Notes: generated from the letters alone by a model not told the origin. A stretch of 64,000 nucleotides of DNA from a virus (IMGVR_UViG_3300032323_003201:1-64000); one strand, 5' to 3'. Shown: positions 16,719 to 57,880, numbered from the stretch's first letter. Translations and numbers: made by a program.

Positions 16719-17061
16719 GAAAAGGGGGGGATAAGGTGAAAAAGGAGCAAAAAAGAGGCAGTTTTCTATCAAAAACCATGTGATTGAGCATGAAAACAGT
16801 CGTTTTTGGGTGCAAAAAAGGGGGGATAATTTGGCGTTTTTCATGTATTTGCCACCCCCCCTCCCCCCCCCACCCCCCATTTACATATCTTTCTATCATC
16901 TCTAAGTAGTTGAAAACACTACATATTTAATAATACTATATACATGGGGGGAGGGGGGGTATTTTTATTTGAGATGAGAAATATTTTTTTATTTTTTTGT
17001 GCAGACAGATTTAGAAAAATATTTTTTTAGAAGAGGTATACACCCCCCACCCCCCCATCAT
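16719..17061 (+). repeat. Long-range inverted repeat, copy A (G/C-run element)
   Basis: The core 16862-17061 matches the reverse complement of 57531-57732 nearly base for base, with a few short indels. Landmarks in order are CCCCCCATTTACATATCTTT, CTAAGTAGTTGAAAAC, TACATGGGGGGAGGGGGGG, GAGAAATATTTTTTTATTTT and AGAAGAGGTATACA. The left arm (16719-16861) is more diverged but keeps AAGGGGGGATAATTTGGC and GGGGGGATAAGG. Several runs of six or more C in a row could form G-quadruplexes on the opposite strand. Confidence 0.92.
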
Positions 17062-17156
17062 GTGAAACAAATAAATTAATGCTCTACATTCGATGAAATC
17101 AAGATATTGATAGCAATGGGGGGGGTATGCATATTTTAGAATGACTTTTTGCCTTG

Positions 17157-17165
17157 TGCTACAAT
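17157..17165 (+). promoter_or_regulatory. Extended -10 promoter for the lysis block
   Basis: TGCTACAAT: -10 hexamer TACAAT at 17160-17165 with TG upstream; no clear -35. It sits just before the ribosome site of the gene at 17184, giving a very short leader. Confidence 0.4.
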
Positions 17166-17183
17166 CCAAGCAAAGGAGACACT

Positions 17184-17492
17184 ATGCAAATGAAGATCAA
17201 TACTGCCAGATACACAACCCTTATTCTTATTCTTTTAATCCTGTGCCTATACTTTCCCAATGTGATGGCATGGGTTAGCACAGTAATCACAAGCATGATA
17301 GGTTGGCTGTTATTCACGACTAAGGAACAGACTAAAGCACAAGAAAAAGCAATAGAGGATCATATCCATAGAGCGATTGAAATCCATGACAAGCTGGCAA
17401 GCATGGAAGCTCTCATGCAACATAAGATGGAAAAGGCACGACTTGACGCAAGGGATGAGGCAATCTCTAAGCTAGATGGTGAATGGAAATGA
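17184..17492 (+). CDS. Small membrane protein with coiled coil (holin-like candidate)
   Basis: 102 residues. The N-terminal TLILILLILCLYFPNVMAWV and the following VSTVITSMIGWLLF form one or two membrane segments, then a charged helix rich in Lys, Glu and Ala runs to the C-terminus. ATG 17184 with AAGGAG five bases upstream is a better start than the TTG at 17154. It heads a run of three small membrane/coiled-coil genes followed closely by a lytic transglycosylase gene, so a holin or spanin-like role in lysis is likely but unproven. Confidence 0.65.
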   Translation: MQMKINTARYTTLILILLILCLYFPNVMAWVSTVITSMIGWLLFTTKEQTKAQEKAIEDHIHRAIEIHDKLASMEALMQHKMEKARLDARDEAISKLDGEWK

Positions 17493-17848
17493 TCAGCCTC
17501 ATCCTACAGCTTGGTCTTTGGGTGAATACGAATGGGGTAGAGCAGCATGTGCCTTGTCCCCTAATCTATGAGCAAGAGCAAAGGTTGCCTGTGGGGTGCA
17601 TGGTGCTAAATCAAGGTGTATTATATTCACCCACACACTACATAGACACTAAAGTGAATGAGTCAGAGGATAAGGTTAAAATTAGTGCATTGGAGGAGCA
17701 AATTGCTTTCCTACAAGCAGAGTTAGTAAAGACTCAAAACCAATTAACAAAATGCCTTATTGAGCCAAAGCCAAGCACAACCCAGCCTTTTATCTATGGT
17801 GTGCTAGGTGGTGCGATTATTACAGGAGCGATATTATGGAACAAGTAA
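17483..17848 (+). CDS. Membrane-anchored coiled-coil protein (lysis block)
   Basis: 121 residues. A short N-terminal domain contains two cysteines (VPCPLIYEQEQ and PVGCMVLNQG), followed by a coiled coil (about 70-95) and a C-terminal membrane helix near YGVLGGAIITGAIL. An ATGA overlap with the previous stop makes ATG 17489 an alternative start. Its 3' end overlaps the next gene by 13 bases. The topology resembles spanin or phage membrane stator proteins, but I recognise no family. Confidence 0.6.
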   Translation: MEMISLILQLGLWVNTNGVEQHVPCPLIYEQEQRLPVGCMVLNQGVLYSPTHYIDTKVNESEDKVKISALEEQIAFLQAELVKTQNQLTKCLIEPKPSTTQPFIYGVLGGAIITGAILWNK

Positions 17849-18072
17849 CTTTAACCTATGCCACACTACTTGGCCTTGTAGGTCTTTTCTATACCTCTCT
17901 CAAAGAGAAGCAAGAGCAAGCCAAATCACTTGGGAAATTAGAAGAGAAGGTGGCTAGTTTAGAAGCCAAACAACAAACTTTACATGAATTAGTGGAAGCT
18001 CTACAAGAAACTAAAATAGCAGTGGCAAGACTTGAAACAAAGATTGACGCTTTACTAGGACATAGACAATAG
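17836..18072 (+). CDS. Small N-terminal membrane protein with coiled coil
   Basis: 78 residues: a membrane helix (about 8-22, ATLLGLVGLFYTSL) followed by a regular heptad helix to the end. It overlaps the preceding gene by 13 bases. The tight chain of three such genes suggests a membrane complex acting in lysis; i-spanin is one possibility. Confidence 0.6.
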   Translation: MEQVTLTYATLLGLVGLFYTSLKEKQEQAKSLGKLEEKVASLEAKQQTLHELVEALQETKIAVARLETKIDALLGHRQ

Positions 18073-18081
18073 GAAGGGAAG

Positions 18082-18684
18082 ATGATGGATCAGTACTCAC
18101 TACTTGCATATAGTGCAAACGATGAAATTTTGGCAACAAAAATAACCTATGCACTTACTCGCTATTCTTCAATCTTAGAGCCAGATGACAAGAGCTTGAT
18201 TTGGCGTTGGTCATCTATCATTAAAGAAATCTGTGAGCCTTTTCCCATCACTATTGCCTACCACATGCCACTTCAACATTGCATTGACTTGTTTCAATTC
18301 GATTTAGGTATAAAGATAGTACATATCTCTGAAAATGAGTATTTTTATCCCCATCAAGTGATAGCTCATAGAAAAATTACTAAGGGGAAGGGTGTTATAG
18401 ATGATGAAGCAGAATTGATTTTGAGAGAGAGTATCCACAAGGCCAGAGTGACTTATTTGTCCCTTATAAATCGTGGTGTTGATCATCAAATTGCAAGCCT
18501 GTGCCTTCCTCAATCCATTTTTGTAGACTGCCACCTTCAAGGAGATATCCACACATGGTGTAGTTTCTTCCTTGCTCTCAAAGAAGATAAGCAAGAGTGG
18601 CAGTATATCAAAAAGCATGCAGAGGGAATACAAAAGCTCATCCAAGAGGTATTCCCCAAAACAATGAAAGTGCTAAAGCTATGA
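18082..18684 (+). CDS. ThyX-like protein, probably lacking catalytic residues
   Basis: 200 residues. The C-terminal half (about residues 125-198) follows the FAD-dependent thymidylate synthase ThyX pattern: LINRGVDHQIASLCLP matches the helix with E-x-AR-x-x-LP, and KEDKQEWQYIKKHAEGIQKL matches the AQ-E-I-x-x-YA helix. The ThyX signature RHRxxSxNxxSxRY is not recognisable, and the arginine of the usual N-x-R-S segment appears absent. So the fold is probably ThyX but classical activity is doubtful. The next metabolic gene is a dCMP deaminase, which makes dUMP. Family assignment is from remembered pattern, not a search. Confidence 0.5.
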   Translation: MMDQYSLLAYSANDEILATKITYALTRYSSILEPDDKSLIWRWSSIIKEICEPFPITIAYHMPLQHCIDLFQFDLGIKIVHISENEYFYPHQVIAHRKITKGKGVIDDEAELILRESIHKARVTYLSLINRGVDHQIASLCLPQSIFVDCHLQGDIHTWCSFFLALKEDKQEWQYIKKHAEGIQKLIQEVFPKTMKVLKL

Positions 18685-19160
18685 CAGACAGTTTTATTTT
18701 ATGTTGGTGGATCATGATGCAAGTTATTGCACCCACTCAAGATCCTGTATCACCAGCATATAAAAAACAATTAGGTAAAACGATCATGGATAGGGTTGTT
18801 CAGTGCGAACAATTACATGACCATGCAATCAAGCATGATGTGAATAAATATCTTGTGCTTTCACTTGCCTACCATGAAAGTAAATTTGTTCGTAATGCAA
18901 AGAGTAGTAAGGGAGCTGTGGGAGCAATGCAAATCATGCCACAGTACAAGCCTTGTGCCAAATGTAGTGATGCAGAGAATGGTGTGCTTATGCTTAGGAA
19001 AATGCTAGATAATCATGGTGGGGATGAGTGTAAGGCAATTGGCTTTTATGCCACTGGTAAGACCTTGCCAAAGTGTGGGAGCTATGGGAAGAGTATCCAA
19101 GATTTTGCTACAGAGATATTTGATTATGCAGTACTCATGGGAATAGATGAGGGTTGCTAA
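18681..19160 (+). CDS. Lytic transglycosylase (SLT domain), lysis enzyme
   Basis: 159 residues. Catalytic Glu66 lies in AYHESKF, followed by SSKGAVGAMQIMP (75-87), the classic soluble lytic transglycosylase signature. The first 16 residues (SFILCWWIMMQVIA) are hydrophobic and may act as a signal or anchor. ATG 18681 overlaps the ThyX-like stop (ATGA). It cleaves peptidoglycan glycan strands; being within the lysis block it could be the endolysin, but a second cell-wall enzyme occurs at 44790. Confidence 0.85.
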   Translation: MTDSFILCWWIMMQVIAPTQDPVSPAYKKQLGKTIMDRVVQCEQLHDHAIKHDVNKYLVLSLAYHESKFVRNAKSSKGAVGAMQIMPQYKPCAKCSDAENGVLMLRKMLDNHGGDECKAIGFYATGKTLPKCGSYGKSIQDFATEIFDYAVLMGIDEGC

Positions 19161-19161
19161 G

Positions 19162-19626
19162 ATGAAGGACAAGTTTTTAAAATTTAGAATTGCTCAGTGC
19201 CTACACCTTGCCACCATGTCCCCCTGTAGTAGGAGACAATTTGGTGCAGTGATTGTAAACCCCACCTCAAATTCGATTTTGGCAGAGGGGTACAATGGCA
19301 CACCAAGAGGACACCAGCACACACTTTGTGGCACTAGCTCTTGCCTTCGTGATTGTGTGCAAAGTGGCACAAAGCTAGAAATTGGCTGTCACCATGCAGA
19401 GGCTAATGCTTTGATGAATGCACTAAGAAATCATGCTGACATTAGGGGTGCTGTCATAATCGTAAGTGGTGAGCCTTGCCTTATGTGTGCAAAATTGATC
19501 CATCATTCAGGTATAGAGAAGGTCTACACAATACAAGGCTCATACTCTGCCAAGGATGGTGTAGACTACTTAATAGAAAACAATGTGCCAGTGCTAAAGG
19601 TCAATGCACAAGGAGAATATTTATGA
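19162..19626 (+). CDS. dcd-like: Deoxycytidylate (dCMP) deaminase
   Basis: Converts dCMP to dUMP for thymidylate supply. The zinc site is HAE in CHHAEANAL and PCLMC in SGEPCLMCAK; cysteines in the CGTSSCLRDC stretch match the extra zinc of phage-type enzymes. I chose ATG 19162 (GAGGG spacing); ATG 19147 in the same frame would add five residues. It ends with an ATGA overlap onto the portal gene, an odd neighbour for a metabolic enzyme, and follows the ThyX-like and lysis genes. Confidence 0.9.
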   Translation: MKDKFLKFRIAQCLHLATMSPCSRRQFGAVIVNPTSNSILAEGYNGTPRGHQHTLCGTSSCLRDCVQSGTKLEIGCHHAEANALMNALRNHADIRGAVIIVSGEPCLMCAKLIHHSGIEKVYTIQGSYSAKDGVDYLIENNVPVLKVNAQGEYL

Positions 19627-21116
19627 GTGATGATTTACAAGTCTTTGCAAAGGCAGCACTTAACCTACTAAAGCAAGCCATGATAGAAAACCCAAGCGTT
19701 GACACAGAGGGGATTGCTAAGAGCTTGATTGAAAACTTGGGGGAAAAACCCACAGTCATGAGCAAGGAAATCAACCCTGCTGATATTGCAAATGTGGGGA
19801 TGATACCACCTTTAGAGATGGGTCATCGTGGCACTTTTGGCTTAACCTTTGACACACTACAAGCCATGTCTCGTGTGCCTGTTATCTCTGCTGTGATTAA
19901 CACAAGAATAAATCAAGTGTCAGAGTTTGCCAAGGCAGTCAATGAAGATGATGGTCTTGGCTTTCAAATTCGTCTCAAAGATCGTAAGGCACATGCAAGT
20001 GAAGATGATAAGCAAAATATCCTTGAGATTACAGAGTTTATAAAATCATGTGGGGATAATCGAATAACTTTTGAAACTGACTTTGAAGCCTTCCTTCGTA
20101 TGCTCGTAAGAGACTCTCTCATTTATGACCAAGCCTGCTTTGAAATCGTTCGTAACCAAGATGGCAAGGTCTGTGGCTTTCTCAATGTGGATAGTGCCAC
20201 AATAAGAAGGTCAGCTCTCACAGAGCAAGAGCGATTAGATGGTAGAAGGTCTGCTGATGGTGTGCAATTTGTGCAGGTGATGAATAACCAAATTGTGGCT
20301 CAATACAAAGCACTAGATCTATGTTGGGGTATTCGTAGACCAAGATCAGATTTACGATTTAGAGGCTATGGCTTTCCAGAGCTTGAAGAGCTTGTTAAAG
20401 TCATCACTCATATTTGTAATGCAGAAATATTTAATGCCAACAATTTCACCAATGGCATTTCTGCAAGTGGGATTATCGCAGTTAAATCAAAGATGAATCC
20501 AACTCTATTCAAAGCTTTTAGGAAAGAGTTTTACTCAATGCTTACAGGTGCAAGCAATAGTAAAAGGACACCTCTTATTCAGCTTGATCCAAGTAATAAC
20601 GAAGAGGTGCAAAGCATCAATCTAAGCAATACAAACAAGGAGATGGAATACCAAGAATGGTTGAATTATTTGCTCAAAATCACTTGTGCCATGTTCCAAA
20701 TAGACCCTGCAGAAATTGGCTTTAATTTTGGTGTAGAGGGTCAATCAAGTGCCATCTTCTCTATGGGTGTCCAAGATCGTGCAATCCTATCTAAAGAAAA
20801 GGGATTGAGGCCACTACTTAGAGCAATAGAGAGCTGGATCAATAGATACATTATTGACCAAATTGACCCTCGTTATGAGCTTACATTCATTGGTCTTGAT
20901 AGTATCCCTAAAGATAAACAGCTTGAGATGGATCTAAAAAAGATGAGCTTTATGACTCTCAATGAAATCAGAGCTAAGTATGATCTGCCACCACACCCAA
21001 TGGGTGATAAAATTGGCAATCCACTTTTTAATCCAACAGAGCAAGCTCAAGTTGGGGAACAAGTAAATGCACCTGAACAGCCTATACAACCCTCTGAAGA
21101 AAATCCTACAGAATAA
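19623..21116 (+). CDS. Portal protein
   Basis: 497 residues. Forms the dodecameric ring at the capsid vertex through which DNA enters. The region around VPVISAVINTRINQVSEFAK and the later ITCAMFQIDPAEIGFNF are typical of phage portal proteins. The frame is open upstream to 19476, but ATG 19623 overlaps the deaminase stop and has AAGGAGA upstream, so that is the start. The C-terminal tail is Pro/Glu/Gln-rich. It precedes the protease and capsid genes as expected. Confidence 0.85.
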   Translation: MSDDLQVFAKAALNLLKQAMIENPSVDTEGIAKSLIENLGEKPTVMSKEINPADIANVGMIPPLEMGHRGTFGLTFDTLQAMSRVPVISAVINTRINQVSEFAKAVNEDDGLGFQIRLKDRKAHASEDDKQNILEITEFIKSCGDNRITFETDFEAFLRMLVRDSLIYDQACFEIVRNQDGKVCGFLNVDSATIRRSALTEQERLDGRRSADGVQFVQVMNNQIVAQYKALDLCWGIRRPRSDLRFRGYGFPELEELVKVITHICNAEIFNANNFTNGISASGIIAVKSKMNPTLFKAFRKEFYSMLTGASNSKRTPLIQLDPSNNEEVQSINLSNTNKEMEYQEWLNYLLKITCAMFQIDPAEIGFNFGVEGQSSAIFSMGVQDRAILSKEKGLRPLLRAIESWINRYIIDQIDPRYELTFIGLDSIPKDKQLEMDLKKMSFMTLNEIRAKYDLPPHPMGDKIGNPLFNPTEQAQVGEQVNAPEQPIQPSEENPTE

Positions 21117-21121
21117 AAAAC

Positions 21122-21155
21122 TTGTACATATCCCTAGCTTATCGGACATGTACAA
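21122..21155. repeat. Short inverted repeat after portal gene
   Basis: TTGTACAT (21122-21129) and ATGTACAA (21148-21155) are perfect complements with an 18-base spacer, in the only sizeable gap of this head block. It may be an operator or an RNA stem. Confidence 0.5.
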
Positions 21156-21204
21156 TTCATCGTATCTAAAAAACTATTAACGAATAAACCAAAGGTTTTT
21201 TATT

Positions 21205-21594
21205 ATGGCTCAAAAGTTATCCTATACAGTGCCTGCAAAGGTTAGAGCAAATGCCAAGCGTGGATTAAAATTGCGTGCTGAGACAGGTGGCAAGGGTGGC
21301 CTCACAACACAACAAGCTGGCAAGCTAAAAATAGGAAGTGGGGTAGCTCGTGCCAACTCTCTTATTCATGGCAATGTTACCTATGACACCATCAAGAGAA
21401 TGTATTCCTTTTTTTCTAGGCACAAGATTTACAAGGACAAAGGCTACCACAAGGATAGAAAAAGCAAGGCTTATATTAGCTGGCTGCTTTGGGGTGGTGA
21501 TGCAGGTTTTTCTTGGTGCAAGCGAATAATTAGAGAGTATGAGTCATCTACTGAAAAAGGTGTCTTTTTAGATATCGTGCTACAATCACTATGA
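21205..21594 (+). CDS. Small basic head-region protein, protease-associated domain
   Basis: 129 residues, very basic. The pattern GVARANSLIHG...RMYSFFSRHK...ISWLLWGGDAG is one I recall as an N-terminal domain of XkdF-type phage serine protease proteins; here it is a separate gene immediately before the protease. Stop and the possible protease start overlap (ATGA at 21591), consistent with a split of a usually fused protein. Molecular function unknown; DNA or capsid binding is plausible from its charge. Confidence 0.65.
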   Translation: MAQKLSYTVPAKVRANAKRGLKLRAETGGKGGLTTQQAGKLKIGSGVARANSLIHGNVTYDTIKRMYSFFSRHKIYKDKGYHKDRKSKAYISWLLWGGDAGFSWCKRIIREYESSTEKGVFLDIVLQSL

Positions 21595-21605
21595 AAAGAG
21601 GTGCT

Positions 21606-22775
21606 ATGAATAAGAGTTATTTTTCAGCATGGACAAGCATTGATTTGTCAAAGGATGATACAGCCAAGGCAGATGAAAAGCTTGGCTTTATCAAGGGTGT
21701 AGTATCATCTGAGCTTGAGGATCAAGCAGGGGATATCATCAAGCAAGATGGTCTTGATTGGACATACTTCCTTGATAAAGGCTATTTCAATTGGGAGCAT
21801 AAAGATGGGCCAGAAAACATACTTGGTTATCCTACCAAGATTTTAAAGGGTGAGTCAGATACTTCGGTTGAAGGCTATCTTTTTCTTGATAGACCCAAAG
21901 CAAAAGATGCGTATGACATGGCTAAAATCCTCAAGGATGTGCAAGCTCCTCGCTCAATTGGTTTCTCTATTGAAGGCCAAGTTATTGAGCGTGATAAAGA
22001 AAATGAGAATATTATCACAAAAGCCAAAATCTTAAATGTAAGTGTAACAGCTCACCCATGCAACCCTGATGCCAAGATGATGGTTAAGGCTCTTGCAGAT
22101 ATGGAAGACTATATGAAAAAGAAAACGACTGTACAGCCAACACTTCTCAAAACAATTGAAGAAGACGAAGCAAAAAAGAAGGCAGAAGCAGAAGCAGCAA
22201 TGGCACAAACTGAGGATGAAAAAAAGGCTTATTCATCAGACGATGATGCTACCAAATCCACAACAGAGGATACTGCTAAAAATGACGACTCCAGCACAAA
22301 AGAAGATGATCAAGGATCTAAAGCAGACGATCAAGAAGCTCAAAAAGTAGCAGAAGACGATGCTGAAAAAGGCATGGTATCAAAATCTGAAGATGATGAT
22401 GATGATATTAACAAGGCTGAAGATGATGATGAAGATGATGAAGATGACTCACTAGATGATGACTCTCTTGATGACTCTTCTCTAACAGATGATTTTTGGG
22501 ATGATGCTGATCGTAAATATGTAGACGAAGCTTTTAGTGCATTGTGGACAATGTTAGGGTCACTACAAGATCAACTCACTGCTCAGATCAAGACAAAGAG
22601 AGTAGCACAAAGACAAGCACTTGCTCAAAAGTCAATCAAGGATGCATCACCAGTATCTAGCAAAGATTTACTTGAGCGAATTGCCAAGCATTTTCCTACA
22701 ATGACACTAGATCAACAAAAACAACTCACTCGCAAAAGTGCTGATATCATCAGAGAGTATTTTGTCAAGGATTAA
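21606..22775 (+). CDS. Prohead serine protease with acidic C-terminal tail
   Basis: 389 residues from ATG 21606 (GAGG upstream; ATG 21591 would add five). The N-terminal domain (about 1-180) has FNWEHKDGPENILGYP with the candidate catalytic His and RSIGFSIEG with the candidate Ser, and ends in VSVTAHPCNPDAKM, as in XkdF/S78-like prohead proteases. Residues about 200-310 are strongly Asp/Glu-rich, including runs of Asp. The last ~80 are helical. Such fused tails can serve as scaffold that is removed on maturation, so one gene may give both protease and scaffold. Confidence 0.8.
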   Translation: MNKSYFSAWTSIDLSKDDTAKADEKLGFIKGVVSSELEDQAGDIIKQDGLDWTYFLDKGYFNWEHKDGPENILGYPTKILKGESDTSVEGYLFLDRPKAKDAYDMAKILKDVQAPRSIGFSIEGQVIERDKENENIITKAKILNVSVTAHPCNPDAKMMVKALADMEDYMKKKTTVQPTLLKTIEEDEAKKKAEAEAAMAQTEDEKKAYSSDDDATKSTTEDTAKNDDSSTKEDDQGSKADDQEAQKVAEDDAEKGMVSKSEDDDDDINKAEDDDEDDEDDSLDDDSLDDSSLTDDFWDDADRKYVDEAFSALWTMLGSLQDQLTAQIKTKRVAQRQALAQKSIKDASPVSSKDLLERIAKHFPTMTLDQQKQLTRKSADIIREYFVKD

Positions 22776-22778
22776 CAA

Positions 22779-23210
22779 ATGAAAAAACAGATGACCAAAG
22801 ACGCAGTGGATCAATTTTTTACCACTCTCAAAAAGAGCATCCTTTCACAAGGAGATACTGTGAAGCAAGCCACCACTCTAGCCAAGTCTGCTGACAAGGC
22901 TCTAAATGACCAAAATGCAACCATCGCAGCATTGGCAAAGACCATTGAGATTTTGACCCAAAAGGTTGAAGCTCTTAGTCAACCTAAAGCACCAGCTATT
23001 CAAAAGTCTGTGACCCATGTTGCACCTGAAGCTCACCCATTAAATGGTACAGCGATTGCTCAAGAAGAAGATGCACCTACACTTATTCAAAAAGCATTTG
23101 ATCTTTTGAAGGGTGCTGACAAGGCTAGACAATCTGAATTGACCAGAGCTATCTCTTTGCTCAATGTTGGTGGCAATCCCTCTGAAATCAAAAAGAATTA
23201 CAAGTTGTAG
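22779..23210 (+). CDS. Scaffold- or capsid-associated protein (putative)
   Basis: 143 residues between protease and capsid genes. Helical N-terminal half with a coiled-coil-like region (ATIAALAKTIEILTQKVEAL), a Pro/Ala linker, and a short helical C-terminus. No family recognised. Position and helical character suggest a scaffold or decoration function. Confidence 0.6.
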   Translation: MKKQMTKDAVDQFFTTLKKSILSQGDTVKQATTLAKSADKALNDQNATIAALAKTIEILTQKVEALSQPKAPAIQKSVTHVAPEAHPLNGTAIAQEEDAPTLIQKAFDLLKGADKARQSELTRAISLLNVGGNPSEIKKNYKL

Positions 23211-23219
23211 GAGACACAC

Positions 23220-24716
23220 ATGTTCGGTTTACCAAATAACAATGAAATGGTTAGCATTAGCGATTTAACTCGTTTAAATGATGCAATTCGCAAGGCAACC
23301 CCTGGTTTTGCTGGTTATCAAACCCCAGCTCAAATGGGTGATGGCTCTTTATCTCCTCTTGCCACCCAAAGCATTGAGGCTAATCTTGCCACAGCTACCT
23401 TTACAAGCAAGCACCTTACCTTGTGGCAAAAACTCACCAAGACCAGTGCAAATAATTTTATCCATGAATATACCTCTGTGCTTGAAAATGGTTTAGATAC
23501 CAATCCATTCATTGCAGAAGGTGAAGGTGGCTCTGATTCACTTGGCACAAATCAATCTGTGTATGAAAGAAAGTTTGTAAAGATCAAATTCATGGCAGAA
23601 AGACGCCAAGTATCTGATATGGCCTCTATGTTGTCATTCAACATTGGTGCAAATGCAAATGCTTTGGCAGAAGAAACTGAAAGAGGCACTTTAACTCTTC
23701 TCAAAAAAATCGAAAAAGCCTTGTGGTTTGGTGATGAAGATGTAAATCCTGAAGGCTTTGATGGGATTATCAAGCAAATTGAGCGTACAAGTGGTGCGAT
23801 TGTTGATGGTCAAGGTCGTCCTTATCGTTCAAATACTTGGGATTTAGAAGGCAAAGCTCCAACTGTTCTTCTTCTTCAAGAAATCCTTGGTGAAGTATAT
23901 GGGTCTCCAAATTATGGTGAACCTGATACCATCTATGTAACACCAGCTATCTATGCCGAATTACAAAAGCAATTTAACGAACAAGGCAGATATGATATTA
24001 GCATCAGTGGCAATTCAATTGTTGCAGGTGTCAAGTCTATTTCTGTGATGGCACCATATGGTTTAGTTGATATTGTTTCTGCACCATTCCTTGAAAGATC
24101 AGAAAAACCCAATGCGATTGAAGCTGTAGGTCATGGGATTGTTGCAAGTTTCTCTACACAACCAACAGCAGCAGCTGATGCATCTAGCAAGAGCAAGTTT
24201 AAGGCAGCAGATGCAGGCTTTTATAAATATGCAGTTGTTGCAGTCAATAAACTTGGTATGACCTTGCCAATTATCTCTAATGCTGTTCAAGTATCAGCTG
24301 GGGATAAAGTAAGCATGAAGATTGCTCGCAATGGTGGAAATCCTGCAATCTCTTATCGTATCTATCGCACAGCTAAGGCAGTATCTGCTGAAGCTGTGAA
24401 TTTAGATTCTCTCAAATTTATTATGGAAGTATCTGCAAGCCAACTCGAAGGCAATACCTTTGCTGATTACAATCATTTCATGTATGGCTGTTCTCACATT
24501 GTGTTTGCAAATCATGATCCAGGTCAAATGGCTTTTGCAAAACTCATGGATTTCATGAGAAAAGATTTGGCACAAGTGTCTACAACAAGACCATTCTTGC
24601 TCATGCTTTTTGGCTCACTCATGGTAAAGACACCTAACAAGTTTTGGGTTGTTCGTAATGCTGGTGTGAACAATGCAAGTGGTGTTGCTGCTAATTATTT
24701 AAACGCAAATTTCTAA
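23220..24716 (+). CDS. Major capsid protein
   Basis: 498 residues, following the scaffold-like gene with a strong ribosome site (AGGAGA). HK97-type features include the long N-arm, FIAEGEGGS-type loop, KFMAERRQVSDMAS helix and a P-domain around TIYVTPAIYAELQKQFNEQG. Residues about 305-410 look like an Ig-like insertion (YKYAVVAVNKLGMT..ISYRIYRTAK). The C-terminus ends in RNAGVNNASGVAANYLNANF. Identification is by position, size and fold pattern. Confidence 0.85.
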   Translation: MFGLPNNNEMVSISDLTRLNDAIRKATPGFAGYQTPAQMGDGSLSPLATQSIEANLATATFTSKHLTLWQKLTKTSANNFIHEYTSVLENGLDTNPFIAEGEGGSDSLGTNQSVYERKFVKIKFMAERRQVSDMASMLSFNIGANANALAEETERGTLTLLKKIEKALWFGDEDVNPEGFDGIIKQIERTSGAIVDGQGRPYRSNTWDLEGKAPTVLLLQEILGEVYGSPNYGEPDTIYVTPAIYAELQKQFNEQGRYDISISGNSIVAGVKSISVMAPYGLVDIVSAPFLERSEKPNAIEAVGHGIVASFSTQPTAAADASSKSKFKAADAGFYKYAVVAVNKLGMTLPIISNAVQVSAGDKVSMKIARNGGNPAISYRIYRTAKAVSAEAVNLDSLKFIMEVSASQLEGNTFADYNHFMYGCSHIVFANHDPGQMAFAKLMDFMRKDLAQVSTTRPFLLMLFGSLMVKTPNKFWVVRNAGVNNASGVAANYLNANF

Positions 24717-50415: not shown

Positions 50416-50476
50416 CATAAATCCTTTGTGTGTGGGTGGCACATATAAACACACACTCACAAGCAATTTTTAAAAA

Positions 50477-51067
50477 TTATTTTTTATGCGTAATACAGCC
50501 TTGTTCATCTGGCTGTGCAGAGTAATCTCTTTTTTTTACCTGTTCAAGCTTGGTGGCCACTGCTGTTCTTACATCAATATCGCAAAGTGCTGCAAGGTGC
50601 ATAAGCAAAATGTATAGGTCAGCAAATTCTTTTTCTTGTGCCTCTGTCCCCACATCTGTTTCTTCAAATTCCTTGATTTCATTTTTGAGATGGTTGATAA
50701 CACCAGAGATGGAAGCTCTACCATCAAATTGAGTTTGCCACTGCCACACTTCCTTGGTGATTGAGTCAAGGCTTGGGATAAGAGGCAAGTAAAACCCTAC
50801 ATTTTCACTATCAAGAGCTTTGAGCATAGGTAAATCCTCATCTGTTGCACCCATCTGTTCCCAATTGTACATGGGGGTGATTGTGCCACTTGGATTTAAC
50901 TTGATACCTTCCAAAGCATTGTCATATTTTGCCTTGAGAAGAAGAGGCTCTTGATTGCATGCAGTGAAATGCTCAACAATTTGCAATTTCCTAGCCAAGT
51001 TATTTGCGACTAGGTAGTCAATTAAATATTTTTTTACAGTATGGGGTACAGCCACTTCAATTTTCAT
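50477..51067 (-). CDS. DUF550/MazG-like dATP/dGTP pyrophosphohydrolase domain protein
   Basis: 196 residues. The C-terminal half shows VWQWQTQFDGRASISGVINH, NEIKEFEE, EFADLYILLMHLA and ATKLEQVKKRDYSA followed by PDEQGCITH, the order expected for DUF550 all-alpha NTP pyrophosphatases with EExxE..ExxD metal-binding helices. The N-terminal ~90 residues are not recognised. It probably removes particular dNTPs to bias the pool or to favour modified bases. Confidence 0.72.
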   Translation of the reverse strand: MKIEVAVPHTVKKYLIDYLVANNLARKLQIVEHFTACNQEPLLLKAKYDNALEGIKLNPSGTITPMYNWEQMGATDEDLPMLKALDSENVGFYLPLIPSLDSITKEVWQWQTQFDGRASISGVINHLKNEIKEFEETDVGTEAQEKEFADLYILLMHLAALCDIDVRTAVATKLEQVKKRDYSAQPDEQGCITHKK

Positions 51068-51171
51068 TTTTTTGATCCTTCTTGGATATGTATATGTCTA
51101 TATAGGTATGACATAACAATAAGCATAAGCATAAGGATATATATATAAAAATAGTAAAAATTTCAGCTTAT

Positions 51172-51759
51172 TTATTTATGTGTGATAAAACCTTTAGCAC
51201 CTATTGTATGACCCAATTCATTTCTTACAGGGTCAACTTGGAGCAAATCACCACGCTCAGGGATTGCCATAAAAACCATTGCAGACACAATGTAATACAC
51301 ACCTTCTTCATATGGTGGAAGGTCAACAACCACATCAAAAGGCTCTTTATAGGTCACTTTGGTTTTAATGATTGGTAAATAAAGGCCACTGACATCCACA
51401 GGAGCTACAACGAAGCAATGAGTTTTTACATCATCTTGCACTGCCTTACCACCCTTGTTTGTCATTCTTGCCACAAGACCAGATGGCTTGATTGTGCATA
51501 GAATTTCTTGTGTAATTTCATCCATCATATCGATAGGGTGGGGGGTTGCATTGTAGATACATCTTGTATCCTGCTGTACTTCAAGAAGCTTTAATTGGTC
51601 TGCTGTGGCAAGCTTTCTAACTTCAATCCCATCTTCAACCTCTCTATGATTTTCAGAGAAGGTTAAAAAGGTCATGCGATTAATCAAGTCTTGATTTTCT
51701 TTGATTTTGGTATCAATCAAGGCTCTGATGGTTTTTAAATAAGATCTAAAATCACTCAT
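51172..51759 (-). CDS. Hypothetical protein of nucleotide operon
   Basis: 195 residues from ATG 51759 (GGA upstream; ATG 51771 also possible). N-terminal coiled-coil-like helix. The C-terminus contains IVSAMVFMAIPERGDLLQVD followed by NELGHTIGAKGF, a segment I have seen in small phage proteins of unknown function. No enzymatic motif visible. Its promoter is not clear; it may be read from the upstream RNR genes. Confidence 0.6.
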   Translation of the reverse strand: MSDFRSYLKTIRALIDTKIKENQDLINRMTFLTFSENHREVEDGIEVRKLATADQLKLLEVQQDTRCIYNATPHPIDMMDEITQEILCTIKPSGLVARMTNKGGKAVQDDVKTHCFVVAPVDVSGLYLPIIKTKVTYKEPFDVVVDLPPYEEGVYYIVSAMVFMAIPERGDLLQVDPVRNELGHTIGAKGFITHK

Positions 51760-51877
51760 TTGTGTATCCATGTGGGTGGGGGTTTGCTTTGAAACCAAAG
51801 ATAACAAAAATATTTTAGATTGTATAGATAATTGTTTATATTTTATTTTTTATGAAAGATTTACTTATTCCGATTTA

Positions 51878-52825
51878 CTACCAACCCCACTCACCTGTCA
51901 TACCACTTGCACTATAATCTGTGACTACACCCTCAAAAAAGTTTTTGAAAGACACCCCATTGACAATCCAATCAAGCCAAGGTAGTGGGTTTTTTTCAAT
52001 ATGATAAATAGGTGTGCAATTTAATTGGTGCAATCGTCTATCTGCTAGATACCTAATAAATGTTTTAACAGCGACCTTGGTTAAGCTCTCCATCACTTGG
52101 ATATCCCCAAAGATTAAATCAATGACTTGATCTTCTAGCTGCACTGCTGACTCAAACAGTCTCTTGATATCACTCTCACTTACCTTGACTTGGGTTTCTT
52201 CTACATAGGTATGGTAAAGCTTAGTCATTGCCTCAACATGTAAGCTCTCGTCTTTAATTGACCATTCCACAACCTCACACATACCTTTCATTTTCCCATG
52301 CTGTTGGAAGTGTAAGAGCATGACAAATGCACTGAACAAGCTCATCCCTTCATTGCACACTGCTTGTGCCAGTGCATAGGCTGTTTGTGTGCTATCACTT
52401 GGGTTGATTGCTTGCATGTTGTGAATTTTATCTAGCATTGGCTTGTGACTAAGAAAATAAGCATACTCACTTTCATCAAGGCCAAGTGTGTCATTGAGTA
52501 GTGCATAAGCTCTCTGGTGTGTGCCTTCACGATTAGCAAAGGATAACAACATGTTGCGAATTTCATTGTTCCTAAAAATAGGCAAGAATTGGTCAACATA
52601 GTTATCTGCTACAGCCACATCTGACTGAGTAAAAATTCTTAGGATTTGTGTGATAAAAAGCTTTTCAGTATCACTAAGACCCTTGCTTTTCCACTGCTTT
52701 ACATCCTCCTGCAATTTTGCCTCCCATGTCCCCCAATGTGCCTTTTCATGACTCTCTGCATATTGCATTGCCCAAGGATAGTGGAAGGGTTTATATGTTT
52801 TGCTCTCTTTTAATAAATTACTCAT
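51878..52825 (-). CDS. nrdB/nrdF: Ribonucleotide reductase, class I beta subunit
   Basis: 315 residues from ATG 52825 (AAGGA upstream). Di-iron ligands appear as Asp69 (TQSDVAVADNY), Glu100 and His103 (REGTHQRAYALL), Glu159 (CNEGM), Glu193 and His196 (KDESLH). The radical tyrosine Tyr107 is present four residues after His103. So a classical tyrosyl-radical enzyme is expected. Starts five bases before the alpha subunit's stop region, forming a coupled pair. Provides dNTPs for replication. Confidence 0.92.
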   Translation of the reverse strand: MSNLLKESKTYKPFHYPWAMQYAESHEKAHWGTWEAKLQEDVKQWKSKGLSDTEKLFITQILRIFTQSDVAVADNYVDQFLPIFRNNEIRNMLLSFANREGTHQRAYALLNDTLGLDESEYAYFLSHKPMLDKIHNMQAINPSDSTQTAYALAQAVCNEGMSLFSAFVMLLHFQQHGKMKGMCEVVEWSIKDESLHVEAMTKLYHTYVEETQVKVSESDIKRLFESAVQLEDQVIDLIFGDIQVMESLTKVAVKTFIRYLADRRLHQLNCTPIYHIEKNPLPWLDWIVNGVSFKNFFEGVVTDYSASGMTGEWGW

Positions 52826-52829
52826 TTTA

Positions 52830-54548
52830 TTATCCTTGACATGCGATACATTCATCAAGCTTTACGACTTGCTTGATAACTGGCTTACTGATTTTTTCTG
52901 CTTGTGTGCCTGCTGTTGTGCGAAGGTAGTACACAGATTTTAAGCCTTCCTTCCATGCTTGAAGGTGGCAGGCATTAACATACGATTTATCACTGCCTGA
53001 AGGGAAGAATAAATTAACAGATTGACCTTGGCAAATGTGTGCTTGTCTATCCCCAGCATGAGAAATCACCCACCTTTGATCAATTTCATATGCAGTCTTA
53101 AACACTTGCTTTTGTTGGTAGTTGAGCATTGGAAGGTGTTGTACTGACCCTTCATGAATTATGATTGATTGCCACACATCTTCATACTCTGACTCAGTCA
53201 ATCCTTTGAGCCTTAAAATCTCATCAAGATATTTATTCTTAGTTAGGAATGTGCCAGCTCGTGTGCGATGGGTGAAAGCATTGGCAACCCAAGGCTCAAT
53301 GGATGGTGAGGTATCCAAAATGATGGATGAATTTGAGTTGGGAGCTACTGCTAACAAGTGTGCATTGCGTCTACATGTGCCAACACCATCAGGATACTCA
53401 CCACGCTCAATCGCTAGGATTTCACTTTGAGCAATTGCCTTCTCTTGGATCAGCTTAAATATTTTTTTATTGAGACCTTTGGCAACCACTGACTCAAAAG
53501 CCACATTCTTTCTTTGTAGGTATGAATGAAATCCCATCGTGCCAAGACCCAAGGATCTTTCTTGCCTTGCACCATGTATGGCATTGGCAAGTTGGGGGGG
53601 TGCATGGTCAATGAAATATTGAAGCACATTGTCCAAAAATGTTATGCAATCCTCAACAATGCTTGTATCTTTCCAATCATCAAAATATTCTAGGTTTAGG
53701 CTAGATAGACAACATACAGCTGACCTATCTTTGGCAGTTGGCAAAAAAATCTCGGAACAAAGATTTGAGCTATGTATTTGTAAGCCTTTATCCTTTAAAG
53801 CCTGTGGTAAAGCTCGATTAGCTGTGTCCTTGAACATAAGATATGGCTCACCTGTTCTAAATCTCACCTCTAAAATTCGTTGCCACAATTCTCGTGCTTG
53901 GATTGTTTCCCTTGTTTCCTTTGTGTGTGGGTCAATCAAATCCCAACTCGTATTATCTATGACAGCTGTCATGAAAGCATCACTTATGCAGATTGCATTG
54001 TGCAAATTGAAAGCCTTCCTATTGGTATCACCACCTGTAGGTAATCGTAAATTGAGAAATTCAATGATATCAGGATGGTCAACATCTAAGTATGCTGCAT
54101 AGCTCGCTCTTCTAGTCTTGCCTTGTCTATATGCCTCAACATCACTATCAACAGTTTTGATAAAAGGAATTGGCCCAGGTGCTTTTTGGGATACAGCTCT
54201 CACATGTCCCCAATAGCCACCTACACCACCACCTAGCACACCAAGCCACCTATTTTCAGTAGTGTGAGAGATGAGACCATCAAGGTCATCACTTACATAG
54301 GTGAGGTAGCAAGAGATTGGCAAGCCAGCTTTAACCTTCTCTTCTTCTTTCAATCTTGCATTGGATAAAATAGGGGATGAGAACATAAACCACCCCTTTT
54401 TTACATAGCTATGGATACGACCAGCTAAATCCAAATCACCTGCACAATAAGCTAGGCTTGCTCGCTCAAAAGCCTCATCAATATTTTTTTCATATGGTAG
54501 TAAATAGTAGCTCGTCAATAGTGACAAAGCATGATCAGAAAATTGCAT
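52830..54548 (-). CDS. nrdA: Ribonucleotide reductase, class I alpha subunit
   Basis: 572 residues. Active site Asn262-Cys264-Glu266 in SSNLCSEIF, the disulfide partners Cys80 (LPISCYL) and a Cys at 279/280 (AVCCLSS), radical-transfer tyrosines in SVYYLRT and the thioredoxin-reactive C-terminal CIACQG are all present. There is no N-terminal ATP-cone domain, so allosteric activity regulation is probably reduced. This is common in phage enzymes and would keep dNTP synthesis on. Confidence 0.93.
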   Translation of the reverse strand: MQFSDHALSLLTSYYLLPYEKNIDEAFERASLAYCAGDLDLAGRIHSYVKKGWFMFSSPILSNARLKEEEKVKAGLPISCYLTYVSDDLDGLISHTTENRWLGVLGGGVGGYWGHVRAVSQKAPGPIPFIKTVDSDVEAYRQGKTRRASYAAYLDVDHPDIIEFLNLRLPTGGDTNRKAFNLHNAICISDAFMTAVIDNTSWDLIDPHTKETRETIQARELWQRILEVRFRTGEPYLMFKDTANRALPQALKDKGLQIHSSNLCSEIFLPTAKDRSAVCCLSSLNLEYFDDWKDTSIVEDCITFLDNVLQYFIDHAPPQLANAIHGARQERSLGLGTMGFHSYLQRKNVAFESVVAKGLNKKIFKLIQEKAIAQSEILAIERGEYPDGVGTCRRNAHLLAVAPNSNSSIILDTSPSIEPWVANAFTHRTRAGTFLTKNKYLDEILRLKGLTESEYEDVWQSIIIHEGSVQHLPMLNYQQKQVFKTAYEIDQRWVISHAGDRQAHICQGQSVNLFFPSGSDKSYVNACHLQAWKEGLKSVYYLRTTAGTQAEKISKPVIKQVVKLDECIACQG

Positions 54549-54633
54549 TTCATGTCTCCTTTGAATGGTTTTTCACTATATCCAAAACACAAGAAGCATG
54601 ATGAAATTTTGAAACTCGTATCTCAGTCGTATT

Positions 54634-55482
54634 TCATTTATGACAAGCTAGACACACCTTAACAGATCCATAAACATCATCTGTATCAAGGGAGCATGAT
54701 CCACCCTGTAGTAAATTTGTGCGTCTTTTCTTTGCTTGCTTGTCTTGATATTGTTGCTTTCTCTTCTCATAGTCAGCTTTGATTTGAGCTACCCTCTCTG
54801 GTTGTGCTAGTTGCTCAAGGCTTTCATTCTCTGACCAAGTGAAAAAATAGCCATCCTTGATACTACTCTTTTCATAATCGATAGCCTCTTGAAAGGCTTG
54901 GGGGTGTCTCTCAAGTAACCCAACCCATTCAATCTTTCTTTGGAAAAAGCAAAAGGTGCATCCACTTCTACTTCTCCATTCATAGTATTGTGGTAAACCA
55001 AGACCAGCATCACTAAGTAGGCTCATGACTCTTGGCTTATCAATGCCATTTTCCCTAAGAGGGAGCTTAATGATTAGGTTTGAGTCTTTTGATTGGTATC
55101 CCTCTCTAAACTCTTCATCTGCACGAATAGCCACATAAGAATAAACTGTATAGCCTTCTTCTAAGAATGCCTGCACCCAATCTTCAAAGGGTTTCAATTT
55201 CATCTTTATGGTGCACCATCGATCAGTGGCACTTGGTAAATAATTACCATGTTGTCTAAGCCAAAAGTCAAAATCTCTCTTAGAGTCAAGTCTATTGATC
55301 TTCTTTCTAAGATAACCCTCTAGCCTATTTAGAAAATCATAGGTTTCAGGCAATTCTTTACCTGTATCTGTGAAGAAATACTCAATATCAATATCAGGGT
55401 GATATGTTCTCATGTAGACTGCAAGGCCTGCACTATCCTTACCACCAGATATACCAAGCACATGTTTTTCTTTTTTAAGCAT
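54634..55482 (-). CDS. PAPS reductase/DndC-like PP-loop protein
   Basis: 282 residues. N-terminal SGGKDSAG is the PP-loop. FTDTGKELPETYDFL, WCTIKMKLKPF and GCTFCFFQRK follow the PAPS-reductase/DndC-type order. Additional cysteines near the end (SVKVCLACHK) could bind Fe-S. In DndC/SspC-type systems such proteins help put sulfur into DNA backbone; in other cases the activity is on sulfate or tRNA. No other dnd/ssp gene is recognisable here, so the target is open. Placed between RNR and clamp genes. Confidence 0.75.
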   Translation of the reverse strand: MLKKEKHVLGISGGKDSAGLAVYMRTYHPDIDIEYFFTDTGKELPETYDFLNRLEGYLRKKINRLDSKRDFDFWLRQHGNYLPSATDRWCTIKMKLKPFEDWVQAFLEEGYTVYSYVAIRADEEFREGYQSKDSNLIIKLPLRENGIDKPRVMSLLSDAGLGLPQYYEWRSRSGCTFCFFQRKIEWVGLLERHPQAFQEAIDYEKSSIKDGYFFTWSENESLEQLAQPERVAQIKADYEKRKQQYQDKQAKKRRTNLLQGGSCSLDTDDVYGSVKVCLACHK

Positions 55483-55484
55483 GA

Positions 55485-56567
55485 CTAAGCTCTTCTTGCC
55501 ATCACGATCATTTGTGTTTTCTCATCACTGGATTTAAGAAGCAATGGTGTCATCTCGCTTAGTGAGTGATAGGCTAGGTCAGTATTTGTAAAGCCATGAA
55601 ACAGGTAGTCTAGTTGAAATCTCATGGTATAAATTGGGTCAGATGCTAGGGTGTCATATTGGTACACCTCTTGAGCCTTGACAGTACAGCTCATTCTAAA
55701 GTTATTAAACTCATCTAGGGAAATGAGAATGGTTGAGTCACCCCCACCCACCTTTCTACATTGACCAAGTGCCTTCTTCATGTCCTCTGTCACCTTATAT
55801 TCAAAGCTATGCTTTTTAGGTAGCACAGCATGAATATCAGGATAATCCTCCACAAGCAAACGAATAGACAAGCTCCGATGCACATCAGAGAAAACAAGAC
55901 TTGTGCCTTGCTTAAAGATAGCAGGGTAAGAGGTGGATGATAGGAAGCTCAAGATATGAGATACAGCAGAGCTAGGGATAAGAGCATTGAAATGAAGATC
56001 CTTATTCAATTTCTTATTTAGATTTAGGAAGGTAGCAGCATGGCCATTGGTTGAGTACATGCTTAATTTACCATCATCACAAACAAGATACACACTACAT
56101 AAGCGAATGCGACTCTCGTCCTTACTGACAAATGGAATAGCTAGAGATAGGCAATGAGATAGCTCCTTAACCTCTTCATCTGTCCAAACAACCATGCCTT
56201 CAGGTGCTAAGGGTGTCTCAATGGTTGGGTAATCTTGAGCTGGCAAGGCTTGCACGAAGATTGTGACTTTACCACATAGAGCCACATTCTTTTCTAAATC
56301 AAAATCCACAGTGCCAGAGCATACAGAAATAATTTGTTGGATTGACTCATGGTGAATAAGAATTGTGCCATCCTTATGATCAGTTGATGCAAGTGTAAGT
56401 GTTGAGCAAATTGTCATTTGTAGGTCAGTGGCAGACACCAAAAGATCATCCCCCACGATTTGGAATTTGATCATGGCAAGGTATTCAGGTTGTTTAACAA
56501 GCTTGGCAAGTGAAACAACAGCCTTGAGCTGTGTTAAGTGCTTAGTAATATCAAGTGAGAATTTCAA
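55485..56567 (-). CDS. dnaN: DNA polymerase sliding clamp (beta clamp)
   Basis: 360 residues with the three-fold repeat of the bacterial beta clamp: ALPAQDYPTIE, VYLVCDDGKLSMYSTNGHAA and LSIRLLVEDYPDIHAVLP correspond to repeated landmarks of DnaN, and the C-terminal LLLKSSDEKTQMIVMARRA matches the typical ending ...MPMR. Tethers a polymerase to DNA. A phage-encoded bacterial-type clamp with a family A polymerase is uncommon, so the partner polymerase is of interest. Confidence 0.85.
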   Translation of the reverse strand: MKFSLDITKHLTQLKAVVSLAKLVKQPEYLAMIKFQIVGDDLLVSATDLQMTICSTLTLASTDHKDGTILIHHESIQQIISVCSGTVDFDLEKNVALCGKVTIFVQALPAQDYPTIETPLAPEGMVVWTDEEVKELSHCLSLAIPFVSKDESRIRLCSVYLVCDDGKLSMYSTNGHAATFLNLNKKLNKDLHFNALIPSSAVSHILSFLSSTSYPAIFKQGTSLVFSDVHRSLSIRLLVEDYPDIHAVLPKKHSFEYKVTEDMKKALGQCRKVGGGDSTILISLDEFNNFRMSCTVKAQEVYQYDTLASDPIYTMRFQLDYLFHGFTNTDLAYHSLSEMTPLLLKSSDEKTQMIVMARRA

Positions 56568-56627
56568 GTGTTTTGTCCTTTCATAAAAAGTGAGACACTA
56601 TATAACAAAAAAATTCAAGCTTGTTGT

Positions 56628-57161
56628 TCAAATTTGATCTAGCACCTTAATGAAATCAGGCAAGAGGTTAGCAAGCATGGGGATTGGTTTACCTACTGCA
56701 AGCAAGTCAGCCTCTGTGAAGCTCTTCTTTTCATAATCCCTAAATTTGATCCATGGACAAATAAACCACTTATTATCTAGTCTCACAAGCACAACTGCAA
56801 TTTGTCCCCAAGATACTCGTCTATCAAGTTGTTCCCACTGGTAAGGGTCAATCGCACTCTTTTGGATTCGTAAGCCTTCTCTTGATTTGCATTCTAAATA
56901 GCCAGCTTTCCCACTAGGTAGCCAAATCTCAAAATCACAGCCAGCTTTTTCACTATATACTGCATGAAAGCAATTTTTGCCACTACCTACTCTTTTATAA
57001 GGCTCATGTCTCTTACACAGCTCTGCAATCCCATGCTGTAGGTAGAATGCACCAATCTCTAAGATTTGTTCCTCTGCTGTCTTACCTTGTCTTTGTGCAC
57101 GCAAGCCTGCTGCACTTTTCTCTGTCAATTGCCTTGGCATAAACCCTCTTCTCTTATTCAT
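56628..57161 (-). CDS. RecU-like Holliday-junction resolvase/PD-(D/E)XK nuclease
   Basis: 177 residues from ATG 57161 (GGAC upstream). YLQHGIAELCKRHEPYKRV, GCDFEIWLPSGKAGYLECKS with D...ExK active-site residues, and YQWEQLDRRVSWGQIAVVLV fit the RecU/VRR-type fold. It would resolve recombination intermediates. First gene of the leftward replication/nucleotide operon, starting at the edge of the inverted element copy B. Confidence 0.72.
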   Translation of the reverse strand: MNKRRGFMPRQLTEKSAAGLRAQRQGKTAEEQILEIGAFYLQHGIAELCKRHEPYKRVGSGKNCFHAVYSEKAGCDFEIWLPSGKAGYLECKSREGLRIQKSAIDPYQWEQLDRRVSWGQIAVVLVRLDNKWFICPWIKFRDYEKKSFTEADLLAVGKPIPMLANLLPDFIKVLDQI

Positions 57162-57530
57162 AGCTTGTCCTTTCAAATCGTTGAACATGATCTAAGGATA
57201 CAATAAATTGACTATATACAGGCTGGCTATTTGAGCAGAGATTAAAAATAATGCCTTTAATCTTTTAGGGGGGGATAGGTATCTTTGGGGGGGTGCTTTT
57301 GACTAAAAAGGCAGTGAATTTGACTAAAAAAGGCATGGAAAGCTTAAAATTTAGGGTCAAAAAGAGGGGGGTAAATTGACCATTTTGGCAAAAATCAGAG
57401 CCTTGCTCAAAAACAGACACCCCCCCCATGCAAAAATCATGTGTGATTGAGCGAATAGCACAGTATAGATAAACCCTTGAATTACAATATATTTTACCAT
57501 GTGATGGACATTAACTTTATCATGGGGGGT

Positions 57531-57880
57531 ATGATGGGGGGGGTGGGGGTGTGTATACCTCTTCTAAAAAAATATTTTTCTAAATATGACTACACAAAAA
57601 AATAAAAAAATATTTCTCATCATCAAATAAAAATACCCCCCCCTCCCCCCATGTATACAGTGTTATTAAATAATCAATGTTTTCAACTACTTAGAGATGA
57701 TAGAAAGATATGTAAATGGGGGGTGGGGGGGGTACTCCCTCATGAAAAGTGGTAAAAGTGCCAAATTATCCCCCCTTTTTTGACCCTAAAAATGACAGTT
57801 TTTTGATGAAATTTGATACTTTTTGATAGATTTCCATCACTTTTTGAGCCTTTTTTAGCCTTATCCCCCCCTTTTTTGAC
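57531..57880 (-). repeat. Long-range inverted repeat, copy B (G/C-run element)
   Basis: Reverse complement of copy A at 16719-17061. The core (57531-57732) is near identical apart from scattered substitutions and short indels; the outer arm keeps GCCAAATTATCCCCCC and TTATCCCCCCCTTTTTTG. The 40.5 kb between copies carries the structural and replication operons. Confidence 0.92.

What the first reader, a model, noticed from the sequence alone, without database searches (positions are those of the whole stretch)
16719..57880. A 343/350-bp G/C-run element present twice in inverted orientation about 40.5 kb apart
16719-17061 and 57531-57880 are reverse complements, nearly base-for-base over 200 bp and diverging outward. 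Both are gene-free, dense in long G and C runs, and one lies exactly between divergent operons. Such an element could be a pair of replication origins, a packaging or recombination site, or an inversion hotspot. Conservation of non-coding sequence at distance implies function or gene conversion between copies.
Basis: partly seen in the sequence, partly recalled or inferred. Interest (0 to 1): 0.82.

Follow-up and report, generated by a model that had tools for sequence, protein, structure and literature searches.

The report
Twin inverted phage elements flipping segment
A 72-kb phage of unknown host carries two gene-free, origin-like DNA elements facing each other 40 kb apart; its relatives keep a matched pair at the same two places although the sequence differs from species to species, and public contigs show the segment between them in both orientations, which suggests that the pair recombines and flips over half of the genome.

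Summary
16719-17061 (+) and 57531-57875 (-) are 83% identical in inverted orientation (E 7e-94), the only two copies in a circularly closed 72,061-bp myovirus. Two relatives (G003, also circular, and G002) carry G/C-run elements at the same two syntenic sites. The element sequence differs between species, yet the two copies within a genome are alike (K 0.10-0.19, against synonymous divergence of about 1.8 between genomes). So the pair is old and has been homogenised by recombination. In one species cluster the RecU-like resolvase operon is joined through the same 211-bp core either to the 58035 side (L036/L049, standard) or to the tail-fibre side (G002 and L032/L047, inverted). Orientation does not follow relatedness (L047 and L049 are 99.6% identical). 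Other contigs stop inside the element. Each element has an AT-rich core framed by a G-run and a C-run 97-102 bp apart, plus species-specific repeats. Best reading: a pair of initiator-binding, origin-like elements, like SPP1 oriL/oriR but longer, inverted and recombining, so that the 35-40-kb segment isomerises. Homogenisation is well supported. Inversion is supported by assemblies, not reads. Origin function is inferred. A Gin-type invertase is encoded, but no gix-like site was found.

The parts
16719..17061 (+). element copy 1 (outside-to-inside reading = + strand)
57531..57875 (-). element copy 2, reverse complement of copy 1, 83% identical
16855..16878 (+). outer C-run cluster C7TC9AC6 of copy 1
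16946..17056 (+). central module of copy 1: G6AG7 (16946-16959) TATTTTT, T-tracts, C6AC7 (17043-17056). The G-run-start to C-run-start distance of 97-102 bp is kept in all five elements of three species
57536..57650 (-). central module of copy 2 (G-run at 57636-57650 and C-runs at 57536-57549 when read on the minus strand)
57718..57732 (-). outer C-run cluster of copy 2
16714..16829 (+). two outer iteron-like repeats of copy 1 (near-copy of AAAAAAGGGGGGATAA at 16719, exact at 16814)
57766..57879 (-). outer iteron-like repeats of copy 2 (at 57766 and 57861) and TCAAAAA boxes spaced 32, 21, 20 and 23 bp
57350..57386 (+). inner, inverted copy of the same repeat on the resolvase side of copy 2 (81% to 57754-57790)
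17062..57530 (.). 40-kb segment bounded by the two elements; its counterpart in the G002 species cluster occurs in both orientations
56628..57188 (-). RecU-like Holliday-junction resolvase gene, first gene inside the segment at copy 2
17154..17492 (+). first gene inside the segment at copy 1 (unknown function), start of the structural operon
58035..58238 (+). 67-aa conserved all-helical protein next to copy 2 on the outside; weak fold resemblance to ribbon-helix-helix DNA binders (no match with E below 0.001)
62335..62934 (+). Gin-family serine invertase; catalytic part 82-86% identical between the three phages, helix-turn-helix tail only 22-24%

Best explanation
The two elements are a functionally matched pair of cis-acting replication/recombination sites: AT-rich cores framed by G and C runs and flanked by species-specific, helically spaced repeats (iterons) that a phage DNA-binding protein, most likely the SF3 helicase-primase encoded at 66237-69737 of the genome, recognises to open DNA and start replication, or to arrest a fork as SPP1 gp38 does at oriR. 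Because the copies face each other in a circular genome, recombination between them, with the RecU-like resolvase encoded beside copy 2 a candidate helper, does two things: it homogenises the copies (gene conversion) and it flips the 35-40 kb segment between them (crossover). Supported here: the pair exists in three species at the same sites; the copies evolve together within a genome and apart between genomes; contigs of one species carry both segment orientations. Inferred: that the sites are origins, which protein binds them, and that homologous recombination rather than the phage's own invertase makes the crossover.
For: Elements at the same two syntenic sites in G003 and G002. Within-genome copies align over 348 nt (83%) and 398 nt (86%), while between genomes almost nothing aligns. 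K between copies is 0.10-0.19 against dS 1.7-1.8 between genomes, so exchange happened long after the split. Several other orthologous intergenic gaps do align between G000 and G003. Both junction types occur in one species: resolvase-element-58035 side in L036/L049 (1734 bp 99.94% to the G002 end) and resolvase-element-tail fibre in G002 and L032/L047. The shared 211-bp core differs at 0-1 positions, and orientation does not follow relatedness (L047 vs L049 99.59%, each 97.3% to G002). Six of ten contigs reaching the resolvase and five of six reaching gene 17483 stop at or inside the element, and two 35-kb contigs are exactly the segment, ending at an element on both sides. Repeats spaced 20-22 bp on one or both sides of the core in most elements; repeat words found only or almost only in the elements. 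Central G-run/T-rich/C-run module with constant 97-102 bp spacing; of nine viral-contig stretches matching its pattern, seven are in this phage family. The genome encodes an SF3 helicase-primase, its own DNA polymerase, clamp, exonuclease and a RecU-like resolvase. The helicase core is conserved (54-93%) while its two ends are less so (23-46% in many windows). SPP1 offers a worked precedent with two origins of direct repeats plus an AT-rich element bound by one initiator (PMC6316719; PMC3485210).
Against: No replication start was mapped. GC skew follows gene strand and cannot be separated from it. Copy 1 of this window shows little of the 21-22 bp periodicity (5-mer score 4, common elsewhere), and the score of copy 2 is reached by 3% of other windows. 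The inversion rests on assembled contigs, which may be misjoined at repeats, and G/C runs may by themselves break assemblies. G000 and G003 copies have diverged 14-17%, so they are probably not recombining now at high rate by ordinary homologous recombination. Positions next to operon starts would also suit a shared regulatory site.
Confidence: 0.5

Rival explanations
1. Site-specific inversion: the Gin-family serine recombinase at 62335-62934 recognises a short site inside each element and flips the 40-kb segment; the long similarity is its synaptic or accessory region.
For: Closest solved relatives are DNA invertases (entries 4m6f and 3uj3, E about 1e-49), well ahead of resolvases. Its DNA-reading tail is 22-24% identical between the three phages while the catalytic part is 82-86%, as if it followed the species-specific elements. 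It lies 4.5 kb from copy 2. Both orientations exist.
Against: Short-site crossover alone would not homogenise about 350 bp. The gene sits between two methyltransferase genes and may serve them.
Confidence: 0.2
2. Shared transcription-control region: both copies lie just upstream of the two operons that read into the segment (structural and resolvase/clamp/RNR operons) and carry the same promoter/operators, kept alike by one regulator.
For: Orientation relative to the downstream operon is the same in both copies; operators are species-specific elsewhere in this genome too; a candidate -35 TTGAAA lies just before the G-run; the transcript has a strong C-run/G-run stem (z -3.8); a possible ribbon-helix-helix gene is adjacent.
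Against: Promoter-like matches are at chance level and no compact terminator was found. About 350 bp of similarity at low K is far more than operators need. Such a site does not explain the inversion.
Confidence: 0.2
3. Passive repeat: an old duplicated non-coding stretch kept alike by occasional recombination, with inversions as a harmless by-product or assembly artefact.
For: Gene conversion alone explains the low K between copies; G/C runs and repeats are known assembly traps (general knowledge).
Against: Kept at the same two sites in three species at dS of about 1.8; the G-run/T-rich/C-run module and its spacing are constant although the sequence is not; within a species the core is more conserved than the neighbouring genes (0-1 differences in 211 bp against 2.7%).
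Confidence: 0.1

Closest known systems
Bacillus phage SPP1 oriL and oriR (gp38-bound dual origins; PMC6316719, PMC3485210)
   Same: Two distant sites in one circularised tailed-phage genome, each with direct repeats plus an AT-rich part; one (oriR) lies among late genes; a phage Holliday-junction resolvase is implicated in the switch that follows fork arrest.
   Different: Here the copies are inverted, about 350 bp alike, framed by G and C runs, homogenised, and bound a segment that occurs in both orientations. A gp38 homologue was not looked for by direct comparison; the initiator candidate is an SF3 helicase-primase. The SPP1 sequence was not in the collection under the accessions tried, so no direct comparison was made.
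Satellite phage P4 ori1/crr (recalled from general knowledge)
   Same: Two separate iteron-bearing sites used by one SF3 helicase-primase (the P4 alpha protein).
   Different: Not compared by sequence here; P4 is an 11-kb satellite and no segment inversion between the sites is known to me.
Yeast 2-micron plasmid, HSV-1 and chloroplast inverted repeats (isomerising genomes; PMC3147054)
   Same: Inverted repeats in a replicating genome whose unique segment is found in both orientations, with recombination tied to replication.
   Different: Those repeats are longer and near-identical (general knowledge); here G000 and G003 copies are 83-86% alike and the genome is a tailed phage.
Gin/Cin/Hin invertible segments
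   Same: A Gin-family recombinase is encoded and a segment inverts.
   Different: The segment is 35-40 kb rather than a few kb, the ends are non-coding so no fibre gene is switched, and no 26-bp crossover site was found.

Membership tests
SPP1-type dual phage origin | two separated sites sharing the same repeats, present at both and not elsewhere | tested here: met
   species-specific 16-25-nt repeat words found only or almost only in the two elements of each genome
SPP1-type dual phage origin | regularly spaced direct repeats (iterons) in each site | tested here: inconclusive
   20-22 bp is the top spacing in most elements, clear in G003 and the G002 cluster, weak in copy 1 of this window
SPP1-type dual phage origin | AT-rich unwinding element next to the repeats | tested here: met
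   T-tract core between G-run and C-run in all elements read through
SPP1-type dual phage origin | replication starts or forks arrest there; initiator binds | not testable with these tools
   needs read depth over an infection and binding assays
SPP1-type dual phage origin | gp38-family initiator | not tested
   family scans show a VapE-like SF3 helicase-primase instead; no direct gp38 comparison was run
Gin/Hin/Cin invertible segment | serine invertase gene | tested here: met
Gin/Hin/Cin invertible segment | paired 26-bp crossover sites with dyad half-sites at the segment ends | tested here: not met
Gin/Hin/Cin invertible segment | inversion switches alternative protein ends (usually tail fibres) | tested here: not met
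   the junctions lie in gene-free DNA; no gene crosses them
Isomerising inverted-repeat genome (2-micron, HSV-1) | both orientations of the segment exist | tested here: met
   both junction types in contigs of one species, from three samples
Isomerising inverted-repeat genome (2-micron, HSV-1) | both orientations coexist in one population | not testable with these tools
   raw reads are not held; contigs stopping inside the element are only suggestive

The most novel reading that the evidence does not exclude
The flip is part of the replication cycle: recombination between the two facing elements during theta replication turns one fork round, so that both forks chase each other and the phage makes concatemers by double rolling circle, as proposed for the yeast 2-micron plasmid. 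A tailed phage would then switch from theta to sigma replication by inverting half of its genome.
Probability: 0.12. Interest if true: 0.88.

Novelty: new variant of a known kind. Interest (0 to 1): 0.64.

Why it matters
How tailed phages pass from circular replication to concatemers is known in few systems. A natural phage family with a matched, facing, homogenised pair of origin-like elements and a segment seen in both orientations gives a concrete place to test whether paired origins, fork arrest and inversion drive that switch. It also warns that many metagenomic phage contigs may be cut, or frozen in one orientation, at such elements.

Tried and rejected
Known RNA families: none in the window. 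tRNA: none. Annotated phages: no DNA match to the element and only remote relatives of the terminase and major capsid proteins. Prophage or host by resolvase and terminase in 84,980 genomes: none, so the host is unknown. An exact 30-mer of this window's core in viral contigs: none, as expected from the turnover. Packaging site: no support. Compact intrinsic terminator and sigma-70 promoter: chance level. Third-position skew of the few genes that run against their neighbours: too few genes to decide. G6AG7 equals the human mitochondrial CSB II run (recalled), which suggested an R-loop or G-quadruplex origin, but the exact run is not kept in relatives (G8AG6, G9), so it stays a lead. Two pattern hits outside the family (L054, L057) carry no related genes. 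Literature searches found no description of a tailed phage with such an isomerising pair, in open-access text only.

Full report
1. Observation. The two stretches are there and are far beyond chance: 16719-17061 (+) matches 57531-57875 (-) at 83% (E 7e-94) and nothing else in the 72,061-bp genome. The best ungapped arms are 103 nt at 91% and 120 nt at 83%. Similarity fades to the outer side of the segment and stops at the inner C-run. The regions are gene-free; the short ORFs called inside have no relatives in the sister phages.

2. What the genome is. The record closes on itself with a 123-nt end overlap, as a circular or circularly permuted genome does. Genes mark a contractile-tailed virus with its own DNA polymerase, exonuclease, helicase, terminase, portal, sheath and baseplate genes, ribonucleotide reductase, sliding clamp, RecU-like resolvase, methyltransferases, a serine recombinase, ThyX and a VapE-like SF3 helicase-primase. 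No integrase was seen among the genes scanned. The host is unknown.

3. The same pair in relatives. IMG/VR holds two long relatives: G003 (72,735 bp, also closed) and G002 (63,017 bp), with mostly 60-95% protein identity. Both have dense G/C-run elements at exactly the two orthologous places: beside the tail-fibre genes, and next to the RecU-like gene facing the 58035 gene. In G003 the two copies match over 398 nt at 86%; in G002 the second copy is cut by the contig end but shares its outer part (78% over 126 nt). Between species the elements barely align, while several other intergenic gaps do (for example 313 nt at 79% and 199 nt at 83%; these may hold unlisted coding sequence). Synonymous divergence between genomes is about 1.7-1.8, against 0.10-0.19 between copies. 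The positions are therefore old and the copies have exchanged sequence since the split: concerted evolution.

4. The segment is found in both orientations. In G000 and G003 the order is tail fibre - element - gene 17154 ... resolvase - element - gene 58035. In G002 the tail-fibre side is joined through the element to the resolvase operon. A second sample (L032/L047) has the same inverted junction, reaching tail-fibre sequence 91.6% identical to G002. A third sample (L036/L049) joins the resolvase to the 58035 side, and that side is 99.94% identical to the G002 contig start over 1734 bp. The 211-bp core differs at no or one position among the three. L047 (inverted) and L049 (standard) are 99.59% identical over 2.9 kb of the resolvase operon, while G002 (inverted) is 97.3% from both, so orientation does not follow relatedness. 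Six of ten resolvase-bearing contigs and five of six contigs with gene 17483 end at or inside the element, and contigs 3300046786_000914 and 3300033076_001332 are exactly the inter-element segment. Unresolved repeats or mixed isomers would do this; trouble sequencing through G/C runs could add to it. Because raw reads are not available, misassembly at the repeat is not fully excluded, but it would have to occur alike in two independent samples.

5. Anatomy. Read from outside to inside, the elements share the order C-run, AT-rich stretch, G-run, T-tract stretch, C-run, and mostly a further G-run. The distance from the central G-run to the next C-run is 97-102 bp in all five elements measured, although the sequence between differs. 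A search of 2.9 million viral contigs for G6TATTTT-N68-92-AC6 returned nine stretches, seven of them in this family and the other two without related genes. Repeats flank the core. Their wording is species-specific (AAAAAAGGGGGGATAA here, AATTACCCTTTTTACCCCCC in G003, AATTCCCCCCTCTAAAAAGGTAATT in G002); the longer words are found only in the elements, some copies in inverted orientation on the inner side. Their spacing is commonly 20-22 bp, with 31-32 and 74 bp, all near whole helical turns. This periodicity is clear in the G002 cluster and G003, moderate in copy 2 here and weak in copy 1. The RNA of the core forms a strong C-run/G-run stem (z -3.8).

6. Who might act on it. The SF3 helicase-primase has a conserved core and fast-changing ends. 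The 67-aa protein next to copy 2 is predicted all-helical with only weak resemblance to ribbon-helix-helix repressors. The serine recombinase is a Gin-family invertase whose DNA-reading tail has diverged to 22-24% identity while the catalytic part stays at 82-86%: the pattern expected if it tracks a changing target, though no invertase-type site was found in the elements. Each is a candidate; none is shown to bind.

7. Mechanism. I favour an origin-like pair: an initiator binds the repeats, the T-rich core between the G and C clamps opens, and replication starts or, at a bound copy, stops. SPP1 gives the precedent: two origins of direct repeats plus an AT-rich element, one initiator, fork arrest at oriR and a phage Holliday-junction resolvase in the switch to concatemers (PMC6316719; PMC3485210). 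Recombination at such arrested or restarted forks between facing copies would give both gene conversion and inversion; double rolling-circle replication is known to stimulate inversion between inverted repeats (PMC3147054). Shown: pairing, synteny, homogenisation. Strongly suggested: inversion. Inferred: origin function and the acting proteins.

8. Verdict. Interest 0.64: an unusual and testable arrangement, novel as a variant of paired phage origins and isomerising inverted repeats, with the function still to be shown.

Noticed in passing
1990-2047, 31711-31744, 44696-44718, 46188-46231, 47806-47849 (and 66145, 71599 of the 72-kb genome): A family of AT-rich palindromic operator/promoter-like sites (AGTTAAA..TTTAACTTTT, several followed by TTACTTGACTT) scattered over the genome; absent from G003 and G002 at 3 mismatches, so this regulator's specificity also seems to change between species.
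   Followed up: partly
12311-14047 and 9673-11400: Long in-frame tandem repeats (282-bp units and others) in the two tail-fibre genes 8856-11903 and 11909-16558; a related repeat lies at 41803-41881 in another gene.
   Followed up: no
L047 5841-7533 against G002 31043-33102: The receptor-binding-like genes next to the element on the tail-fibre side are replaced between two otherwise 97-98% identical phages, a hypervariable module beside the recombining element.
   Followed up: partly
58974-60416, 62335-62934, 62915-64252: Two related N6-methyltransferase genes lie on either side of the Gin-family recombinase, whose end overlaps the second methyltransferase start; a possible alternative substrate region of the recombinase.
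   Followed up: partly
29899-31640: Four-gene minus-strand block inside the structural operon with no counterpart in G003 or G002.
   Followed up: no
54634-55482: PAPS-reductase-family gene, 92% identical in G003 but missing from G002; possibly a DNA-modification or sulfur-metabolism gene.
   Followed up: no
46243-46788: Second ClpP/head-protease-like gene, not found in G003 or G002.
   Followed up: no
47836-48855: Conserved protein with many helix-turn-helix motifs, similar to phage D5-like regulators; a further candidate DNA-binding partner.
   Followed up: no
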